Shown here: positions 4,502 to 64,000 of the stretch, piece by piece | Layout of the letters: each line of letters opens with the position of its first letter | How positions within the stretch are numbered: the first letter of the stretch is position 1 | Source: Enterobacter kobei | GTDB taxonomy: Bacteria > Pseudomonadota > Gammaproteobacteria > Enterobacterales > Enterobacteriaceae | DNA length: 64,000 nt | Reading direction: 5' to 3' | Assembly (NCBI RefSeq): GCF_001729765.1 | Contig: NZ_CP017181.1 | Span: 558,001-622,000 of the forward strand | The notes under the pieces: model-generated | Told to the model about the DNA's origin: nothing | Databases searched by the model: none | What the model saw: only the letters and a program-made list of their open reading frames with translations | Translations under genes and position numbers: made by a program

Positions 4502-5008
4502 TCAAAGCGGCAGACGCATGGCGCAGCGGGAGTCAAACGCTAAGCCGTGCGCTGTCTCATCTTCCCTTTTCTGACGCAGTTCAGGCGTGAGTTCAGTGAC
4601 GTAGTCAAACCCCAGCCGCGCATAGAACGGCGCATTCCACGGTACGTCGCAGAATGTCGTCAACGTCAGCGACGACAGCCCCCCTTCGCGGGCATGGTCA
4701 GCCACAGTGTTAATGAGCTGCCGACCAATCCCCTTTCCCTGCCAGTCCAGATGCACCGAAAGTTCGACAATAAACAGCGATGTCGCGTGCGCCTCTGCGA
4801 GGATAAACCCAACGGGATGGTCGTTCGCCAGCGCCAGCCAGCTTAGCCCCCGTTCGGCATAGTTGAGATGCTCTTCAGTTGAAATCACCTCACCCCCGGC
4901 AAGCCAGGCGAGAGGGGGGATTTCACGAAAACGCTCGCCCGCCGCGCGTTCAATGGCGGGCAGGGTGGCAGCATCGCTGAAGGTGGTAGGGCGAATGCGA
5001 ATGTTCAT
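4502..5008 (-). CDS. GNAT-family N-acetyltransferase
   Basis: Predicted cytoplasmic acetyltransferase that uses acetyl-CoA; the substrate is unknown. The 168-residue product shows the GNAT fold: motif A with the pyrophosphate-binding QGKGIG at residues 90-95 after the strand LFIVELSVHLD, and the C-terminal motif B region with NAPFYARLGF. The N-terminus (MNIRIRPTTFSDAATL) is typical. It ends the leftward accessory block, 29 bp downstream of the FidL-like gene, but nothing ties it functionally to the pilus genes. I do not recognise a specific orthologue. Confidence 0.85.
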   Translation of the reverse strand: MNIRIRPTTFSDAATLPAIERAAGERFREIPPLAWLAGGEVISTEEHLNYAERGLSWLALANDHPVGFILAEAHATSLFIVELSVHLDWQGKGIGRQLINTVADHAREGGLSSLTLTTFCDVPWNAPFYARLGFDYVTELTPELRQKREDETAHGLAFDSRCAMRLPL

Positions 5009-5037
5009 GGCGGGAAGTATAGCCTGACCCGCCGGTA

Positions 5038-5511
5038 TTATTCTGTGCAGACCAGCACCGGCGAGTAAAAATTGCTGATAACCAGTGCATCATGCGGCGT
5101 GCGCTCTATCGCCAGGAGCCTTTTTTTCCCCTGGGTCAGGCCCGCGACGTATTTCTCAAATACGCCCGGCGGCATGGCGTCATGGCCAAAACGCTCCACT
5201 TTTTGAATAACGATCTCATACAGTTCCCCTTCCACGTGGCGCCATTTAAACATCTCCTGACGGGACACTTCCCAGTGGTTTGGGGCATTCTCCACGTTAC
5301 CGTTTAGCGTGATGTACCCGGTTTTGTTGGGGTGAAACTGCATGATGACCTCCCCGTCAAACGTGAATTCGTGGCTGTCACGTTTGTCGGAGAAGGTCAG
5401 ATATCCATTGCAGGCCACCGACAGCGGTGGCGTGTAGAAATACCACGCCAGTGCAGCGCCGGTAATCATCAGGTTAAGGGCCAGAATGAGCCAGATTTTT
5501 GTGTATTTCAT
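5038..5511 (-). CDS. FidL-like membrane-anchored periplasmic protein
   Basis: A 157-residue protein with one N-terminal membrane segment (about residues 6-26) and a periplasmic beta-rich domain with two cysteines (Cys34 and Cys155) at its ends. It resembles Salmonella FidL, encoded beside the ToxR-like regulator MarT; the same arrangement is seen here. The ATG at 5511 is one base beyond the stop of the regulator gene (TGATATG), so the two are almost certainly co-translated. By analogy with ToxS beside ToxR it may stabilise or modulate the regulator's periplasmic domain; that is inference. An in-frame upstream extension overlapping the regulator gene is rejected in favour of this coupled start. 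Confidence 0.75.
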   Translation of the reverse strand: MKYTKIWLILALNLMITGAALAWYFYTPPLSVACNGYLTFSDKRDSHEFTFDGEVIMQFHPNKTGYITLNGNVENAPNHWEVSRQEMFKWRHVEGELYEIVIQKVERFGHDAMPPGVFEKYVAGLTQGKKRLLAIERTPHDALVISNFYSPVLVCTE

Positions 5512-5512
5512 A

Positions 5513-6253
5513 TCACCACTCGTAATAGTAAAGCGTACGACAGGCGCTCGCTTTCCCCTGCGTGAGCGAGCATTGGGAGAGCACCAGTCGTCCCTCGTGG
5601 CCGTAGAAAAGCGTTCGCTGAATGTGCATGTAGAAAATTGAATTTTCCAGGCACGGAAGGTGACCGTCCTGCTGAAGGCTTTGCGCCAGCGCAGCCGCCC
5701 GCTCGTGAAACACATCCGCCAGCGGCGTAAAGGTATAGACCGGACAGTTCCCGATATGGGTCAGCAGATGAATGTCCTTCTGCCGGGTTTCGGGTTTGAT
5801 AGCCGTTATCCAAAGGCACAGCGCAACGACCGCCAGCGTAAGCGCGCCCCAGAGCAGCCGCTCCGGTCGGGCGGGTACTGCAGTTTTCGCCGTTTCGGCG
5901 GCCGGTGTTTCTTCCTCCAGGGCTGTTACCGTGACGTCTGCGCTGAGCATAAAGCCCGTTTTGGGGACAGTGACGATAAACAGCACGTCGGGAAGCAGGC
6001 TGGCCAGCATTTTGCGCAAGATGCTGATGTACTGGTTTAACGAATTGTTAGACCCCTGGAGCCCACGCCGATCCCAGACGTCATGCAGGAAGGTCTCCCG
6101 CTCGACCACGTTCCCATGATGCTGCACCAGCAGCTTCATAATGCTATTGGCTGTGCAGGTGAGGATCTGCGCATCCTCAGGCGGCACATTGATAAGAGAA
6201 ATAGAACCGTCCTCGTCGTTGTAGACGATGACGTCAGCAAGCAGGTATTTCAT
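5513..6253 (-). CDS. ToxR/CadC/MarT-like transmembrane transcriptional regulator
   Basis: One-component membrane regulator of 246 residues. The N-terminal winged-helix DNA-binding domain spans about residues 5-105 (ERETFLHDVWDRRG, then SLNQYISILRKML as the recognition helix and VPKTGFML as the wing). A linker rich in Glu, Thr and Ala follows, then a single TM at about 133-152 and a periplasmic C-terminal domain containing four cysteines, which could form disulfides as in ToxR. The gene is directly downstream of the archaic pilus operon, on the same strand, and upstream of a FidL-like partner. The MarT/FidL pair of Salmonella controls an adhesin, so control of the neighbouring pilus is plausible but unproven. 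Confidence 0.83.
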   Translation of the reverse strand: MKYLLADVIVYNDEDGSISLINVPPEDAQILTCTANSIMKLLVQHHGNVVERETFLHDVWDRRGLQGSNNSLNQYISILRKMLASLLPDVLFIVTVPKTGFMLSADVTVTALEEETPAAETAKTAVPARPERLLWGALTLAVVALCLWITAIKPETRQKDIHLLTHIGNCPVYTFTPLADVFHERAAALAQSLQQDGHLPCLENSIFYMHIQRTLFYGHEGRLVLSQCSLTQGKASACRTLYYYEW

Positions 6254-7337: not shown

Positions 7338-9619
7338 TGTTGTTCTCCAATATTCTGTATGGGTGACGCAGTACGGGGGGCCGGAAGCCTGACCCGGCAC
7401 TCACCCTCACCGGTTTTTACCACCAGCTCACCTGGCAGAGGCGGGTCTTCAAGCCAGATAAAACCGTCACGCCCCACAATGGTGGCACCGCGTGGCGTTG
7501 AGACAATGCTGCCGAGCGGGAGCGGATTATGGTGGAGGTCCACCAGTCGGGCCTGAACTGTGACGGCGTGATGGACGTTAAAATCGACTTTTACCGCGCC
7601 GCCGTTGCCCGGTCTGGCCTGCATGTCGGTGACGGGGGCAATCACGTCGGCAGGCAGATCCAGCGGATTGATGCTGACTTTGCTGGCGTGGTAACGCGGC
7701 AGGTCGGTCAGCAGCAGATACCCTTTCTCGTCGGTTTCGCCTGCCGGGCGGTTTTCCAGCATCACCGGCACATGTCCGACACCGTGCGTGGAGACCAGCG
7801 CCAGGCTTTGTTGGCTGTAGCGCAGCGTGTGCAGGCTGCCATCCAGCAGCGTCAGGCTACCCTCGGCTGAGGCATAGTTAGCGCCCTGCGCCATCCCAAC
7901 GTGCCACTCACCTGCGTGGCCCAGATAGCCCACGTCCGCATAGGTTTCCCGGTGCTCGCCAAAGCCTCGCCCCAGCTGCCATGACCAGCCGCCGACCTGA
8001 TCGTCCGGCTGATGGCGATAATCCATGCGCGGCATATCGCGGCTGGCCTGAACGGAGAGGGTATCCTCACGCCCTAACGGGATCGAAAGCATCAGCTGAA
8101 CGTGGCTCGACGCATCCGTAAACGAGCGGGTGTAGCTCAGCGTGGTGGAAATATGCGCCGGCAGCGAGGCGGACCAGGAGGCGTTGAGATAGCGTTGTTT
8201 GGTGCCCTGAATGTTTTGCTGTACCCAGCCCGCACCGAAGGTACCTGAATGGGGTATCGACTGGCTGACCCAAACGCTATCGCTGCGTCTGACGGGGAGG
8301 GTACCGCTCATGCGGGCGTTATCGGCAAATGTGGCATCGGTACGAACGGTACTGGCAGAGATCCCCGTCCCGCGACCGTTCCATTGCCAGCCAAGGCCCC
8401 ACTGTTTTCCCTGACCGTAGGGGCTGTCGCTGATGGCGACATGCTGGCTGATAATCCCTGTCCCGGGCGAGATCAGCCAGTCGACCCCTGTCCCGACATT
8501 GCGCAGTTTACTCTGCTGCTCCGTGTGCAGCGCCAGCGTCAGCTGGTTATTCACCCCGTAGCGCCACCCTGCGTCGAGCATGGGCGAGGCGGCATAGTCA
8601 TTGGATCGCAGGGCGTAGTTTTGTCGCATCCAGCCGATATCCAGCGAGCCGCTGCTGAGTCCTTCCGCCAGCATCCCCGGCGCACCGTAGAGATCGAGCT
8701 GTACGGTACGACGCTGACCGTTGATGTCGGTAATGACCACCTGGGCCTGCCCGCTTCCGGTAAATGAGGGCAGGGTATCCAGCAGAAAATCGCCCGGCGT
8801 GACGCGCTGGCTGCTCTGCTTAAGCCCGTCGATGTACAGATCGACCGTAGAAGGCAGAACCGCCGTGTCGCTGTAACGGCTACGCGGTTCGGTGTTGAGC
8901 TGCGGATTGAGCTCAAAATTACGCGCCCAGTGCAGCCCGCCAAAGCGTACCTGTCGGCTCCAGCGGGCGCCCGTGGTGATGTTGTCGCCCAGCGCCAGGC
9001 TCGTGAGCGAGTCCGTGTTGTCCCACTGCCAGCGGGTTTCAAGGCGTGTGTGGCGGGGCCGACCTGCGCTGTTTTCCTCACCGGCATGGCTCGAAAAGCT
9101 GCTGCTGAACGTCCCGGGAAGCGCCCCGGATGCGGTGAGCGACGTTTGCGCGTTAAGCTGGCGTTTCCCCTCTGCGCCGCTGCCATAAAGCGCATACCCC
9201 AGCGTCAACACGCTGATGGGCTGCGCCTCAGGATAGCGATACTGCGGCGTCGGCCTCCCGACAGACAGATGCTGTTGGCCCTCAAGCGCCTTTGCGTCGG
9301 CGGTAATGGAGACCTGCTGAGCATGCAAATCGAGACTGACTTTCAGACCCGGCAGGGACGTCAGCGCGACCCACTCGTTGGCGTTATCCGGGGCGCGAAG
9401 CCCCAGTTTTTTGAGGTCGCGGTGGTCCATCCACAGCGCATCTCCCACTACCCGGCAGGCCCACAGATCCCCGCGCGGGTCGTGGTTCACGGTGATTGCC
9501 AGCCATTGCAGGGTATCGGCGGCGGGTTCAGTCCGGGCTGACAGCATCAGCGGTAGCCAAAACAGGAGCGCGAGAAGCAAGCGGGCGCAGGGGTATCTGG
9601 CTGGCATGGTGGTCGTCAT
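7328..9619 (-). CDS. Archaic chaperone-usher pilus outer-membrane usher
   Basis: Outer-membrane usher of 763 residues, by position and family the secretion pore for SCPU-type subunits. It has an N-terminal signal sequence (LLLALLFWLPLMLSA), an N-terminal domain that would bind chaperone-subunit complexes, a large beta-barrel with the plug-region motif (ITDINGQRRTVQLDLYG) and C-terminal domains with a terminal Cys pair (ECRVRL; GEQQC). Length and divergence fit the archaic sigma clade (CsuD-like) rather than FimD/PapC. Its first about 90 bp overlap the end of the chaperone gene in another frame; Met at 9619 and Met at 9607 are both possible starts. Confidence 0.88.
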   Translation of the reverse strand: MTTTMPARYPCARLLLALLFWLPLMLSARTEPAADTLQWLAITVNHDPRGDLWACRVVGDALWMDHRDLKKLGLRAPDNANEWVALTSLPGLKVSLDLHAQQVSITADAKALEGQQHLSVGRPTPQYRYPEAQPISVLTLGYALYGSGAEGKRQLNAQTSLTASGALPGTFSSSFSSHAGEENSAGRPRHTRLETRWQWDNTDSLTSLALGDNITTGARWSRQVRFGGLHWARNFELNPQLNTEPRSRYSDTAVLPSTVDLYIDGLKQSSQRVTPGDFLLDTLPSFTGSGQAQVVITDINGQRRTVQLDLYGAPGMLAEGLSSGSLDIGWMRQNYALRSNDYAASPMLDAGWRYGVNNQLTLALHTEQQSKLRNVGTGVDWLISPGTGIISQHVAISDSPYGQGKQWGLGWQWNGRGTGISASTVRTDATFADNARMSGTLPVRRSDSVWVSQSIPHSGTFGAGWVQQNIQGTKQRYLNASWSASLPAHISTTLSYTRSFTDASSHVQLMLSIPLGREDTLSVQASRDMPRMDYRHQPDDQVGGWSWQLGRGFGEHRETYADVGYLGHAGEWHVGMAQGANYASAEGSLTLLDGSLHTLRYSQQSLALVSTHGVGHVPVMLENRPAGETDEKGYLLLTDLPRYHASKVSINPLDLPADVIAPVTDMQARPGNGGAVKVDFNVHHAVTVQARLVDLHHNPLPLGSIVSTPRGATIVGRDGFIWLEDPPLPGELVVKTGEGECRVRLPAPRTASPIQNIGEQQCH

Positions 9620-10304
9620 TGAGATAGGCGCGCAACGCGCTGAACGTGTGGCGCGAAGTGTGCTTTAGCGTTATAAGCGCGGTCTGTCCCGGCAGAACAT
9701 AGCCCGCCAGCCCTTTCAACGACCCGACGACCTGACCGGTGGCCGTCAGAACCTGCAGGTGGCTCAGGCGGATATGGCTGTTTCCGGCGTTATAGCAGCG
9801 GATCGTTCCCGGGGTGTCCGCCTGTTCGCAGCTCAGGGCATCGCGGCTGACGGGCATATTCTGGTTTCCGGCAATGAAGACAGGAATAGAGTAGCGAAGC
9901 AGAAAGTGTATCGCGTTGGGATTGGCCGCACGGGACGTTGCATCCGGTAGCTCATCAATGACCAGCCGGTAACTTTGCTCCTGTTCACGGATCCCTGGCT
10001 GCATCACGATTATGCGCACCAGCTGCTGCTGGCCCGGCGCCAGTGAGGTCATCGCCGGGCTGCTGACCACCTCGTCGGTGGCCGTTAATACATCTTTACC
10101 GTTTTGCTGGGTCCATTCGTAAACCCGTATCTGCGCATGGATGGCCGCTTTACCGCTGTTAGTGAGGTAGACCGCCGAGGCGCTTTGCCCGCTCTGGAGG
10201 TCGAGCGTCACTGGGGCCACCTGAAGCGTGGCGGCCATCGCGTAGCGAGACAGCAGCGCCAGCATCATGAACCACAGAATGAAGCAGGGGAGAAAACGAC
10301 GCAT
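9528..10304 (-). CDS. Archaic pilus periplasmic chaperone
   Basis: Periplasmic PapD-like chaperone that would fold and deliver the SCPU subunits to the usher. It has 258 residues, with a signal peptide ending near ALLSRYAMA. The N-terminal Ig-like domain shows the archaic-family pattern (APVTLDLQSGQSASAVYLTN), followed by VRIIVMQPG and the YRLVIDELPD strand. The ATG at 10304 is 3 bp past the stop of the major subunit gene; a TTG at 10310 overlapping that stop is the alternative. The 3' end overlaps the usher gene by about 90 bp, so the C-terminal tail (DDHHASQIPLRPLASRAP) is encoded in the overlap. Confidence 0.85.
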   Translation of the reverse strand: MRRFLPCFILWFMMLALLSRYAMAATLQVAPVTLDLQSGQSASAVYLTNSGKAAIHAQIRVYEWTQQNGKDVLTATDEVVSSPAMTSLAPGQQQLVRIIVMQPGIREQEQSYRLVIDELPDATSRAANPNAIHFLLRYSIPVFIAGNQNMPVSRDALSCEQADTPGTIRCYNAGNSHIRLSHLQVLTATGQVVGSLKGLAGYVLPGQTALITLKHTSRHTFSALRAYLNDDHHASQIPLRPLASRAPVLATADAVSPD

Positions 10305-10306
10305 GA

Positions 10307-10804
10307 TCAATACACCAGATTCAACGTGACATCATCGCTATAGGCGCCAGCCTGCGCGGTCATCAGGGCACCTGCGTCAATCACGCCATACAGCGTCTCT
10401 TGCTGTTCCATGCCGTTGCCGGTGTCGGTGAGTCCATCGGTGCTGGTAATTTGCGTCTGTTTGCCCTCATCGGCAAAAAGTTTCCAGGCAATCTTCTGTG
10501 CGCCCGTTTCACCGTTTTCTGGCTTCAGCCAGAAGGTGCCGTTGTCACTGCTATCGTTGCTGGTAGCAGAGAGCGTGAACGGCGTCCCGTTGGTACAGAC
10601 GATATCGACCTGCGTTTTGGCTTGAATTTCGCTTGATTCGTCCGAGCCGTGGCGCGAGAAATTGAGGTCGTTGGCTTTGAGCGTGCAGGACTTCACCACC
10701 TCAAGTGAAACGTGCATCGTCGCGCTTGTGGTGCTGTCTGCGGCGATTGCAGCAGCAGGAAGCAGGAGAACGGAACAACATACAACAACAGGGATAATTC
10801 TCAT
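10307..10804 (-). CDS. Archaic pilus major subunit (spore coat U domain)
   Basis: Secreted structural subunit of 165 residues with one SCPU domain. A signal peptide (MRIIPVVVCCSVLLLPAAAIA) is followed by a strand rich in Thr and Ser. Cys40 and Cys70 would form the disulfide, and the C-terminal DDVTLNLVY strand is the usual donor/termination motif. The ATG at 10804 is preceded by AGGAAATACG; a longer in-frame reading would mask the signal peptide and is rejected. As the first and smallest SCPU gene of the operon it probably encodes the shaft subunit (CsuA/B-like role). Confidence 0.85.
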   Translation of the reverse strand: MRIIPVVVCCSVLLLPAAAIAADSTTSATMHVSLEVVKSCTLKANDLNFSRHGSDESSEIQAKTQVDIVCTNGTPFTLSATSNDSSDNGTFWLKPENGETGAQKIAWKLFADEGKQTQITSTDGLTDTGNGMEQQETLYGVIDAGALMTAQAGAYSDDVTLNLVY

Positions 10805-10836
10805 GATCGTATTTCCTGACGTGAATAACAGTGCAA

Positions 10837-11379
10837 TTACAAAGAAGAGGGGAGCGCGTCCAGCAGGCAGAGTTTTTGATGGAATTCCGCCAGGTTCTGG
10901 CAGCAAAATTTGTTCATCGCGTTACGTTTGTGGGTGTAGATCGTTTTAGGTGACTTATTAAGGATTTGCGCAATACGTATCGGGCTGAATCCTTTATGGA
11001 ACAGCATGCAAACCCGCATCTCCTGACAGGTGAGCGTGGCGGTATTCTCGAAAGAGAAGCTTGTGTCGCTAAAACAGAGGCTTAGCTGCGCGAGAGACAC
11101 ATTGTCCGCAACCACTCTGACCCGCGCGTTGTGTAGCCAGGCGTTAATGTCGTTGACCCGGGCCGCGTCCGTCAATAACAGCCAGTTTCCCCCGACGTGC
11201 GTATTGAGCAGCAGTGTCTGCAGACGCATAAGCCCTTGTGGATTAACGTTGTTAATCCAGTACACCTCAGGACGGGGTGATACGGCTGTCGACAGGATCG
11301 AATTCAGGCCAAGCCATAAAAAAGCGTTGCTGCTCAGAACGATAACCTGATAGCCGGCATTTGCGATGAAAGGCGTCAT
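10837..11379 (-). CDS. LuxR-type DNA-binding regulator, coupled to the EAL gene
   Basis: Probable transcriptional regulator of 180 residues. The C-terminal LuxR/FixJ helix-turn-helix is clear (LTCQEMRVCMLFHKGFSP, then IAQILNKSPKTIYTHKRNAMNK, about residues 112-155). The N-terminal half resembles a degenerate receiver of the RcsA/BglJ kind, with no obvious phospho-acceptor Asp. The start ATG (11379) overlaps the stop of the upstream EAL gene (ATGA), and the stop is 32 bp before the pilus major subunit, so the pilus genes are its most likely target. Confidence 0.8.
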   Translation of the reverse strand: MTPFIANAGYQVIVLSSNAFLWLGLNSILSTAVSPRPEVYWINNVNPQGLMRLQTLLLNTHVGGNWLLLTDAARVNDINAWLHNARVRVVADNVSLAQLSLCFSDTSFSFENTATLTCQEMRVCMLFHKGFSPIRIAQILNKSPKTIYTHKRNAMNKFCCQNLAEFHQKLCLLDALPSSL

Positions 11380-12014
11380 TTTAGACCCCACAGATAACCC
11401 TGGCCGTAATCGGCCGCGCTCGCCCGGGCCAGTGCGAAATCGCCCGCCGTTTCGATGCCTTCAATAAGGACTTTACTGGCGACACGCTTGCATTGACGGG
11501 TGAGATGCAGAAACTTCGCCTGCTCTGTGCGCCCGCTCCAGAAAGTATGTTTGTCAATTTTGACGCCACAGAAGCGGATCTGGCTGGCAAGCAGTTCGGG
11601 AAGAATGGCTTCACAGACATCATCAGCCCACACTTCAATTCCCCAAAGATGAAGTGTCGCAATGCAGTTTCGCAGGACCCGGCTTTGCGTATCATCGAGT
11701 TGTACCATCGTATGGAGATCGGTCACTTCGATAGCAAGCCTCTCCGGACAGGGTGTTGCTTCTTTTAGCCTGTCGAGGAAGTCCGTTTCCAGCAGCAAAT
11801 CTGATGTCGCGTTGAGATAATATTTGTCGCCCTCTTCGCAAAACATGGCATGGCGAAGCTGCGCAAAGAAAAGTTGTTTACGCTGCGTCGAAGGCATGGC
11901 GTCAAAATAGTCTTCGAGATTGACGTGGGGCTTTGCCGTGGACAATACCTCCCAGGCAATCACATGTTCACTGCGCAGTGCCCGGATGGATTCGAACTTA
12001 TAGCCGGTTAGCAT
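11376..12014 (-). CDS. EAL-domain protein, probably degenerate, heading the pilus operon
   Basis: Stand-alone EAL domain of 212 residues with no membrane segment. Residues aligning with the c-di-GMP phosphodiesterase signature are present: EVL at 22-24, Asn68, Glu96, the Asp pair 131-132, Lys152, Glu185 and Gln205 (GQGYLWG). However, the loop normally reading DDFGxG is DDVCEA here, so the loop that couples dimerisation to catalysis is altered. It may be a weak phosphodiesterase, a c-di-GMP-binding protein or a protein-interaction domain. Its stop overlaps the start of the LuxR-type gene. FimW in Salmonella fim and MrkJ in Klebsiella mrk are precedents for EAL proteins in fimbrial loci. Confidence 0.8.
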   Translation of the reverse strand: MLTGYKFESIRALRSEHVIAWEVLSTAKPHVNLEDYFDAMPSTQRKQLFFAQLRHAMFCEEGDKYYLNATSDLLLETDFLDRLKEATPCPERLAIEVTDLHTMVQLDDTQSRVLRNCIATLHLWGIEVWADDVCEAILPELLASQIRFCGVKIDKHTFWSGRTEQAKFLHLTRQCKRVASKVLIEGIETAGDFALARASAADYGQGYLWGLK

Positions 12015-61883: not shown

Positions 61884-62354
61884 ATGAAATACAAGACTTT
61901 GCTTCTTACCGCTCTGTTGCTGGTTGCTGGCCGTGCGGCGCAGGCGGAACAGATTGGATCTGTAGATACCGTGTTCAAAATGTTTGGCCCGGACCACAAA
62001 ATTGTGGTGGAGGCGTTTGACGATCCAGATGTGAAAAACGTCACCTGCTACGTCAGCCGTGCGAAGACGGGCGGTATTAAAGGCGGTCTGGGGCTGGCGG
62101 AAGATACCTCCGATGCGGCGATCTCCTGCCAGCAGGTGGGGCCAGTTGAGCTGAGCGATAAAATTAAAAACGGTAAAGCGCAGGGTGACGTGGTGTTCCA
62201 GAAACGGACGTCGCTGGTGTTCAAAAAGCTGCAGGTAGTGCGTTTCTATGATGCGAAGCGCAATACGCTGGCTTATCTTGCCTATTCCGACAAAGTGGTG
62301 GAAGGCTCGCCGAAAAACGCCATCAGCGCCGTGCCGATTATGCCATGGCATTAA
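61884..62354 (+). CDS. creA: Periplasmic protein CreA
   Basis: Exported protein of unknown function, 156 residues with a signal peptide ([16 protein letters not shown]) and the CreA-family core ([36 protein letters not shown]). Two cysteines probably pair in the periplasm. It is the first gene of creABCD, 14 bp before creB. Confidence 0.95.
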
Positions 62355-62368
62355 TTCAGGGATGAACC

Positions 62369-63058
62369 ATGCAACAACCTGTGGTCTGGCTGGTTGAAGA
62401 CGAAACCAGTATCGCCGATACGCTTATCTACATGCTTCAGCAGGAAGGCTTTGCGGTAAAGGCGTTTGAGCGCGGTTTACCGATGCTGGAGGAGGCGCGG
62501 CGGCAGATCCCGGCGCTCGCCATTCTGGATGTTGGGCTGCCGGACATCAGCGGTTTTGAACTCTGCCGCCAGCTGCTGGCGCAGCATCCGTCACTTCCGG
62601 TGCTGTTTCTCACGGCACGCAGTGATGAAGTGGATAAACTCCTCGGGCTGGAAATGGGCGCCGACGACTACGTCGCCAAGCCTTTTTCTCCGCGAGAGGT
62701 TTGCGCCCGGGTAAGGACAATTTTACGGCGGATGCAAAAATCCGCCGCGCCAGCAGAAACGATGCGTATCGGGCAATTTGAGCTAAATGAACCTGCCGCC
62801 CGAATAAGCTGGTGCGGTGAAGTTTTACCCCTGACCCGCTACGAGTTCTTGCTGCTCAAAACCTTTTTACAGGCCCCCGGGCGGGTATTTTCGCGCCAGC
62901 AGCTGATGGACAAGGTATGGGGTGAAGACGGCGACAGCTTCGATCGTACCGTGGATACCCATATCAAAACCCTGCGCGCCAAGCTGCGGGCGGTGAACGA
63001 TGAACAGTCTCCCATCAGTACCCATCGGGGTATGGGCTACAGTCTGGGCCTTTACTGA
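62369..63058 (+). CDS. creB: Response regulator CreB
   Basis: OmpR-type response regulator of the carbon-source-responsive CreBC system, linked in some enterobacteria and Aeromonas relatives to beta-lactamase and envelope-stress control. It has 229 residues: receiver with the acidic pocket (VEDETS), phospho-acceptor Asp in ILDVGLPD (about residue 54) and the conserved lysine in YVAKPFSPRE, then a winged-helix domain ending STHRGMGYSL. The stop overlaps the creC start (TGATG). Its cognate kinase gene is interrupted. Confidence 0.96.
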   Translation: MQQPVVWLVEDETSIADTLIYMLQQEGFAVKAFERGLPMLEEARRQIPALAILDVGLPDISGFELCRQLLAQHPSLPVLFLTARSDEVDKLLGLEMGADDYVAKPFSPREVCARVRTILRRMQKSAAPAETMRIGQFELNEPAARISWCGEVLPLTRYEFLLLKTFLQAPGRVFSRQQLMDKVWGEDGDSFDRTVDTHIKTLRAKLRAVNDEQSPISTHRGMGYSLGLY

Positions 63059-64000
63059 TGCGCATTGGGATGCGGTTGTTGCTGGGATATTTCCTGATCG
63101 TGGGCATCGCCGCGTGGTTTGTGCTGTCGATTTTTGTTCAGGAAGTGAAGCCCGGCGTGCGCAGGGCCACCGAGGGGACGTTGATCGATACCGCGACCTT
63201 GCTTGCCGAAATCGGGCGCGACGATCTTCTTTCGGGGAATGCGCAGCAGGGCAAACTGGCGCAGGCCTTTTCACAGCTCCATCAGCGGCCTTTCCGCGCC
63301 AACCTCGGCGGCATCTATAAGGTGCGTAACGAGTATCACGTCTATATGACCGATGCGCAGGGCAGAGTGGTGTTTGATTCCGCCGGTCTGGCCGTGGGGC
63401 AAGATTACTCGCGCTGGAACGATGTCTGGCTGACGCTTCGCGGTAAATACGGCGCGCGCAGCACTCAGAGCAATCCAGACGATCCTGAGAGTACGGTGAT
63501 GTATGTTGCCGCGCCGGTTGTGGAGCAGGGTAAGATTATCGGCGTGCTGTCGGTCGGGAAACCGAACAGCGCGATGGCACCGGTTATCCACCGCAGCGAG
63601 CGGCGGATCCTCTGGGCGGGTGGCGCGTTGCTCGGCATTGCCTTGCTGATCGGTCTTCTTGTCGCCTGGTGGATCAATCGTTCTATCAGTACGTTATCGC
63701 GCTATGCCGATTCGGTGACCACCGACACGCATCTCCCGCTACCTAATCCGGGCAGCAGCGAATTGCACAAGCTTGCCCAGGCGCTGGAGAATATGCGCAT
63801 TCGTCTCTAAGGGAAAAATTACATTGAACGCTATGTCCATGCGCTCACCCACGAGCTGAAAAGCCCGATGGCGGCCATACGCGGCGCGGCGGAAATCCTT
63901 GCCGAGCAGCCGCCGCCGCAGGTGGCAGCACGCTTTATTGATAACATTCTGGTACAAAACGCACGCATGCAGTCGCTGGTTGAAAAACTGCTCGCGCAGG
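63058..64000 (+). pseudogene. creC: Sensor kinase CreC, interrupted by a premature stop (partial at window edge)
   Basis: Membrane histidine kinase partner of CreB. The frame encodes 250 residues: TM1 (about 5-24), a periplasmic sensor domain, TM2 (about 181-203) and a HAMP-like region, then TAA at 63808-63810. Beyond it the same frame is open to the window end and encodes the continuation of CreC, including His265 in ALTHELKSP, the phospho-acceptor motif. E. coli CreC, as I recall it, has Glu at the stop position (KLEGKNYIE), so one G-to-T change would explain it. The product as written has no kinase domain. A sequencing error is the alternative. Confidence 0.85.

What the first reader, a model, noticed from the sequence alone, without database searches (positions are those of the whole stretch)
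63058..64000. creC is cut by a single in-frame TAA just before its phospho-acceptor histidine
Codon 251 reads TAA where the E. coli protein, as I recall it, has Glu; upstream and downstream reading frames are otherwise intact and homologous, including the H-box 14 codons later. The strain would make a membrane sensor without a kinase while keeping CreB. In-frame restart codons before His265 are not visible (the next ATG follows it), so rescue by reinitiation looks unlikely. Loss of CreC could alter the Cre regulon and, by analogy with related systems, beta-lactam responses.
Basis: partly seen in the sequence, partly recalled or inferred. Interest (0 to 1): 0.75.

Follow-up and report, generated by a model that had tools for sequence, protein, structure and literature searches.

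The report
Broken sensor in a dispensable regulator
In this Enterobacter-group genome a stop codon cuts the CreC sensor kinase just before its active histidine, most likely a recent loss of function in a regulatory gene set that a number of related species have dropped altogether.

Summary
Observation confirmed. An in-frame TAA at 63808-63810 ends creC after 250 of 474 codons, at the end of HAMP and 14 codons before the H-box histidine (63850). The rest of the frame, creB and creD are intact. All 80 loci kept from a genome scan have one sense residue there. A same-species-like protein, P0005, has no stop there but two frame breaks of its own. No reads were available.

In the genus, creA is in 61 of 61 genomes, creB and creC in 42, creD in 41; 19 lack creBCD as a block, among them a near sister of this genome. 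Five of the 42 creC-bearing genomes, this one included, carry a cre lesion. On an unlinked rpo-region tree the block changes state at least 11 times, and one genome seems to have acquired it from another species. Best reading: an ordinary, recent CreC knockout in a dispensable module; sequencing error is the main rival. The beta-lactam idea found no support: no exact CreB box lies within 250 kb of ampC; indirect effects were not tested.

The parts
61884..62354 (+). creA, intact (156 aa); matched in all 61 genomes of the genus
   Evidence: NCBIfam NF008026 CreA; genus search 61 of 61
62369..63058 (+). creB, intact response regulator (229 aa)
   Evidence: NCBIfam NF008296 CreB 380.4 bits, cut-off 273
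63058..63807 (+). creC 5' part: membrane sensor plus HAMP, codons 1-250, the part translated from the normal start
   Evidence: NCBIfam NF008312 CreC 1-250 of 477; Pfam HAMP residues 201-250
63808..63810 (+). in-frame TAA at codon 251
   Evidence: sequence; 1 TAA inside the frame
63811..64000 (+). creC 3' part after the stop, up to the window end (continues to window-equivalent 64482)
   Evidence: NCBIfam CreC 252-314 and Pfam HisKA; rest of the frame in L002 up to 6483
63850..63852 (+). phospho-acceptor histidine codon (265) in the H-box, downstream of the stop
   Evidence: sequence and HisKA match
63868..63870 (+). first in-frame ATG after the stop; would give a 204-aa fragment lacking the histidine
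   Evidence: ORF L002 5869-6483; CreC profile 271-475; codon list

Best explanation
A recent, probably strain-level, nonsense mutation has inactivated CreC. Shown from sequence: the product of the normal start is the membrane sensor with HAMP, 250 residues, without the histidine or the ATP-binding domain; creB, creD and the CreB box before creD are intact. Inferred: CreB can no longer be phosphorylated by its partner, so creD and any other CreB target stay at basal level or answer only to non-partner phosphate donors. The cell tolerates this because creBCD is a dispensable module in this genus, lost as a whole many times and at least once regained by recombination between species. The stop would be an early step on that path.
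For: Domain content on either side of the stop. creB and creD intact; the CreB box TTCACN6TTCAC lies within the last six codons of creC, before creD, in 41 of the 42 creC-bearing genomes; the one without it, G011, is also the one without creD. creBCD absent as a block from 19 of 61 genomes, creA matched in 61 of 61. In 15 of the 18 empty sites printed only 53-56 bases lie between the creA and arcA coding ends. In 8 of 10 outgroup loci (Escherichia, Citrobacter, two Klebsiella, Trabulsiella, Kluyvera, Kosakonia, Buttiauxella) the order is creA-creB-creC-creD-arcA; the 2 Serratia loci gave no creA or arcA match next to creBCD in the stretch held; so presence looks older. At least 11 state changes on the rpo-region tree of 59 genomes, 14 if only losses are allowed on the midpoint-rooted tree. 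Recent: dN/dS of the 3' half in 4 pairs with the window genome is 0.147-0.182, inside the 0.116-0.261 of 8 other pairs. P0005 shares 222 of 225 residues, and 3 of the 4 window-private residues of the 5' half, and has no stop at 251.
Against: No reads were seen, so an assembly error is open. P0005 enters the CreC frame only at residue 26 and leaves it after about residue 309, so it is noisy or itself damaged and weak proof of an intact sister strain. In the 3' half the window has 5 private amino-acid changes, the most of the 13 close genomes (others 0-4), beside 5 private silent ones: its branch is long, but some loosened selection before the stop is not excluded. CreB without CreC could still be active through other donors, which sequence cannot tell.
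Confidence: 0.72

Rival explanations
1. The stop is a base-calling or assembly error and the strain makes a normal CreC.
For: 80 of 80 kept relatives are open at this codon; dN/dS of the 3' half is not raised; P0005, same-species-like, has no stop.
Against: The genome is given as 100% complete, 0.1% contaminated, two contigs. creC is the only truncated gene among the conserved genes compared across the window. It is a substitution, not the indel usual in long-read errors (recalled). Lesions or absence of cre genes are common in the genus.
Confidence: 0.2
2. A split kinase: translation restarts at the ATT at 63823 (with UAAGG of the stop itself as a weak ribosome site) and a soluble fragment with the histidine and the ATPase domain still phosphorylates CreB.
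For: ATT lies in frame before the histidine, 12 bases after the stop codon; the 3' frame is intact.
Against: No ATG, GTG or TTG before the histidine; the first ATG gives a 204-aa piece without it. ATT starts are very rare (recalled). No creC with a stop at this place was seen in the 80 loci or the 41 other creC-bearing genomes.
Confidence: 0.04
3. The stop is read through at a useful level, so some full-length CreC is made.
For: Open frame to the normal end.
Against: TAA is an efficient stop in enteric bacteria (recalled) and no other creC examined has a stop at this codon. No search for suppressor tRNAs was made.
Confidence: 0.03

Closest known systems
CreBC two-component system with CreD (E. 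coli; BlrAB in Aeromonas)
   Same: Gene order creA-creB-creC-creD-arcA, CreB, CreC and CreD profiles above cut-off, CreB box before creD
   Different: Here the kinase half is cut off by a stop codon at 251
Absence of CreB/CreC in E. cloacae ATCC 13047 (PMC11004495, Table 1 passage)
   Same: Same system missing in the same genus
   Different: There the pair is listed as absent in one species; here a stop removes the kinase half only, and the survey shows many changes of state across the genus
PBP4-CreBC response of P. aeruginosa (PMC2654508, passages seen)
   Same: Same system, creD as its read-out
   Different: There a PBP4 mutation switches CreBC on, and losing creBC lowers the resistance of such mutants; here the system is cut and no CreB-box link to ampC was found

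Membership tests
CreC sensor histidine kinase | Sequence match to the CreC equivalog model | tested here: met
   5' product 376.6 bits, cut-off 356
CreC sensor histidine kinase | Phospho-acceptor histidine domain in the translated product | tested here: not met
   HisKA lies after the stop
CreC sensor histidine kinase | Partner creB upstream and CreB-boxed creD downstream | tested here: met
   the box motif is recalled
CreC sensor histidine kinase | Phosphorylates CreB | not testable with these tools
   needs biochemistry or a creD reporter
Nonsense pseudogene | In-frame stop at a position open in relatives | tested here: met
   80 of 80 kept loci open at the codon; 41 of 42 creC-bearing genomes of the genus open there: 40 have no stop inside, G054 has one elsewhere, after residue 354
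Nonsense pseudogene | Signs of decay after the stop | tested here: not met
   dN/dS of the 3' half not raised and frame intact, though the window has the most private amino-acid changes there (5)
Nonsense pseudogene | Confirmed in raw reads | not testable with these tools
   no reads held

The most novel reading that the evidence does not exclude
creBCD in the Enterobacter group behaves as a chromosomal on/off cassette: deleted and re-entered many times at the same creA-arcA site by recombination through its conserved flanks, under selection that changes direction with habitat, and point knock-outs such as this creC stop are the first step of an off-switch.
Probability: 0.4. Interest if true: 0.5.

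Novelty: new member of a known kind. Interest (0 to 1): 0.3.

Why it matters
Alone, one knocked-out sensor kinase is ordinary. With the genus survey it gives a natural series (intact, kinase-less, creB- or creD-damaged, creD-less, wholly deleted) for asking what a two-component system of poorly known purpose is for, and it advises caution in carrying Cre-based resistance models from Pseudomonas or Aeromonas over to Enterobacter.

Tried and rejected
Other copies of creC in the genome: the DNA search gave one place, and the CreC protein search one match at E 1e-60. A natural short CreC family: not seen at this codon; in the length-limited protein search 4 of the 120 rows shown (of 423) are 240-260 aa long (P0007, P0042, P0045, P0115), two of them named partial. 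Relaxed selection on the 3' half: dN/dS not raised, private amino-acid changes somewhat many. A CreB link to ampC by exact box: not seen; the genes at the other ten boxes were not examined. Transfer by plasmids: 27 of 72,556 plasmid records encode a CreC-like protein at E 1e-60; the 11 at 60-80% identity are Klebsiella and Escherichia records, several of chromosome size; no Enterobacter is among the 27 by first word of the name. Papers: listings (20 of 57 shown; 20 of 24; 12 of 12; 6 of 6; 12 of 13) held no title or abstract start about a creC stop or repeated creBCD loss in Enterobacter; I saw passages of PMC11004495, PMC7672007, PMC10117078, PMC3962086, PMC4689548 and PMC2654508 and read no whole paper. 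Structure prediction was not used, as the domain profiles answered the question.

Full report
What was checked. The window is G000:C1:558001-622000 of a 4.93-Mb genome in two contigs, given as 100% complete. The name Enterobacter is inferred: contigs of the same genus have the lengths of named records of E. asburiae, E. mori and others, but also of Lelliottia, Leclercia and Huaxiibacter, so 'genus' here is that broad group. creC starts at 63058 and stops at TAA 63808-63810. The 250-residue product matches the CreC equivalog over profile positions 1-250 and ends with the HAMP domain (residues 201-250); the frame after the stop matches positions 252-314 and HisKA. I fetched the stretch beyond the window: the frame runs to a normal end at 474 codons, and creD (450 aa, CreD equivalog 505.9 bits) and arcA follow intact. 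The in-frame codons from the stop to the histidine at 63850 hold no ATG, GTG or TTG, only ATT at 63823; the first ATG is 63868.

Is the stop real? No reads are held. Indirect evidence: of 48 genes of the related genome G020 that are full length in at least 3 of the 4 other regions compared, 41 are full length in the window, 6 have no partner at 70% identity (creD, outside the window, is one; the other five I did not examine) and one, creC, is truncated; with G010 as reference 42 genes gave 35, 6 and 1. G007 also shows one truncated gene in each set, G049 none. This speaks against a generally poor assembly but cannot exclude one wrong base. The 80 creC loci kept from the genome scan (107 found) have one and the same sense residue at this codon, in L068 displaced by a short deletion; two of the 80 frames end early elsewhere, L015 after 354 and L054 after 402 residues.

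Strain or species? The protein search returned P0005 (370 aa, from a 3,346-base contig), 222 of 225 residues identical to the window's 5' part and 58 of 60 to the piece after the stop, with no stop between. It shares three of the four residues that only the window has among 13 close genomes in the 5' half (83, 87 and 130, not 225), so it is probably the same species. But it enters the CreC frame only at residue 26 and leaves it after about residue 309, so it is noisy or damaged in its own way. I take it as fair, not strong, evidence that the stop is not fixed in the species.

Age. Pairwise dN/dS of the 3' part is 0.147-0.182 in four pairs with the window genome and 0.116-0.261 in eight pairs without it. 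On the other side, the window has 5 private amino-acid changes there, the most of the 13 genomes (0-4 in the others), with 5 private silent changes. I read this as a long branch without clear decay: the stop is recent, or false.

The genus. 61 genomes of the genus are held. creA is matched in 61 of 61 (in G001 in two pieces), creC in 42 at E 1e-60, creB in 42 at E 1e-70, creD in 41 at E 1e-20. The 19 genomes without creC are the same 19 without creB, and all lack creD; G011 also lacks creD. Two of the 19 (G001, G043) are under 80% complete, but their creA-arcA interval was in hand and held no creBCD. For 18 of the 19 I printed the junction (G001 left out because its creA is broken): 15 have 53-56 bases between the coding ends of creA and arcA, three have 76, 96 and 97 bases with spacers that look unlike each other. 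In 8 of 10 outgroup loci, E. coli, Citrobacter and Klebsiella among them, the order is creA-creB-creC-creD-arcA; the two Serratia loci gave no creA or arcA match beside creBCD in the stretch held. So deletion looks like the derived state. Of the 42 creC-bearing genomes five show a lesion: the window (creC stop), G054 (creC stop after residue 354; a fragmented genome, 86% complete), G021 (creB frame broken), G038 (creD frame broken) and G011 (creD gone). G031 and G051 have a 481-residue CreC, counted as intact.

How often? On a tree of ten genes at the locus (creA and nine flanking genes, 61 genomes) presence and absence need at least 14 changes, 17 if only losses are allowed; shuffled labels need 16.3 on average, and 114 of 1000 shuffles need 14 or fewer. 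On an unlinked tree of nine genes of the rpo region (59 genomes; G043 and G051 had no match; 12,702 columns) the figures are 11 and 14; shuffles average 15.8 and 4 of 1000 need 11 or fewer, so there is some clustering by descent. The window genome groups there with G020 (intact) and G016 (module absent); on the locus tree these three form a clade with support 1.000. Collapsing branches under 0.9 support leaves at best 13 and 11 changes. The loss-only counts depend on midpoint rooting. Some changes may be one deletion allele passed between species, as the compact junctions are alike; judged by eye, the three long ones differ, so I count at least four separate deletions as safe.

Regain. G027 sits among genomes that lack the module (G022, G028, G030, G037, G039), yet its cre genes are 96.7% identical to those of G020 while the locus genes around are 90.3% (the largest residual, 4.8 sd, of 820 pairs). 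In 500-base bins it is 95.4-97.6% identical to G020 from 8501 to 11500 of its stretch. Outside, bins are 88-100% to G030 and 82-99% to G020 (the last bin, 59%, is an end effect and was dropped); G020 is the nearer of the two in only two flank bins, 5001-6000. I read this as acquisition of the block by recombination in the flanks; retention of an old block in G027 alone would not explain the excess similarity to G020.

Elsewhere. In E. coli 5,374 of 5,426 complete genomes hold a creC match, 5,367 over at least 80% of its length; whether each is intact was not tested. In a sample of 149 genomes of the wider family 32 had CreC at E 1e-60; at most ten candidates of each genome were scored there. 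Absence of CreB/CreC in E. cloacae ATCC 13047 is in print (PMC11004495, Table 1, passage seen). The listings showed no report of repeated loss and regain in Enterobacter.

Function. The CreB box TTCACN6TTCAC (recalled motif) lies within the last six codons of creC, before creD, in 41 of 42 creC-bearing genomes; the exception, G011, has also lost creD. In the whole genome 11 exact boxes were found against 9 for the reversed control pattern, so exact boxes give no sign of a large regulon; the other ten sites were not examined. The ACT-family ampC at C1:337613-338659 has no exact box within about 250 kb. In P. aeruginosa a PBP4 mutation activates CreBC, and creBC inactivation strongly reduced the resistance of such mutants (PMC2654508, passages seen). 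So the likely effect of this stop is loss of partner-driven creD expression; a drug effect is not indicated, and not excluded.

Verdict. Observation confirmed; an ordinary recent loss-of-function mutation (0.72), with sequencing error as the main rival (0.2). The more interesting fact lies around it: creBCD is a come-and-go module in this genus.

Noticed in passing
genus loci L113-L131 (creA-arcA interval): creBCD is missing between creA and arcA in 19 of 61 genomes; the 18 junctions printed fall, by eye, into at least four kinds.
   Followed up: yes
L151 (G027), about 8501-11500 in creA orientation: Block of creBCD nearly identical to that of G020 inside flanks of another species group: probably acquired by recombination.
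   Followed up: yes
L148 (G021) creB, L158 (G038) creD, L169 (G054) creC, L141 (G011) creD: Four further lesions in cre genes of the genus; G011 lost creD and has no CreB box at the end of creC.
   Followed up: partly
creC 3' half versus 5' half in the close genomes: In 8 pairs without the window genome the catalytic half has dN/dS of 0.116-0.261, the sensor half 0.022-0.123: the kinase half changes faster than the sensor, the reverse of what I would expect.
   Followed up: no
empty sites L116, L117, L119, L120, L123, L126, L128, L129, L131: In nine of the 18 empty sites printed creA reads one codon further than in the window before its stop.
   Followed up: no
plasmid records NZ_OK287926, NZ_CP118441, NZ_CP100393: Aeromonas caviae records of 201-244 kb listed as plasmids carry a gene annotated blrB, the CreC relative.
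   Followed up: no
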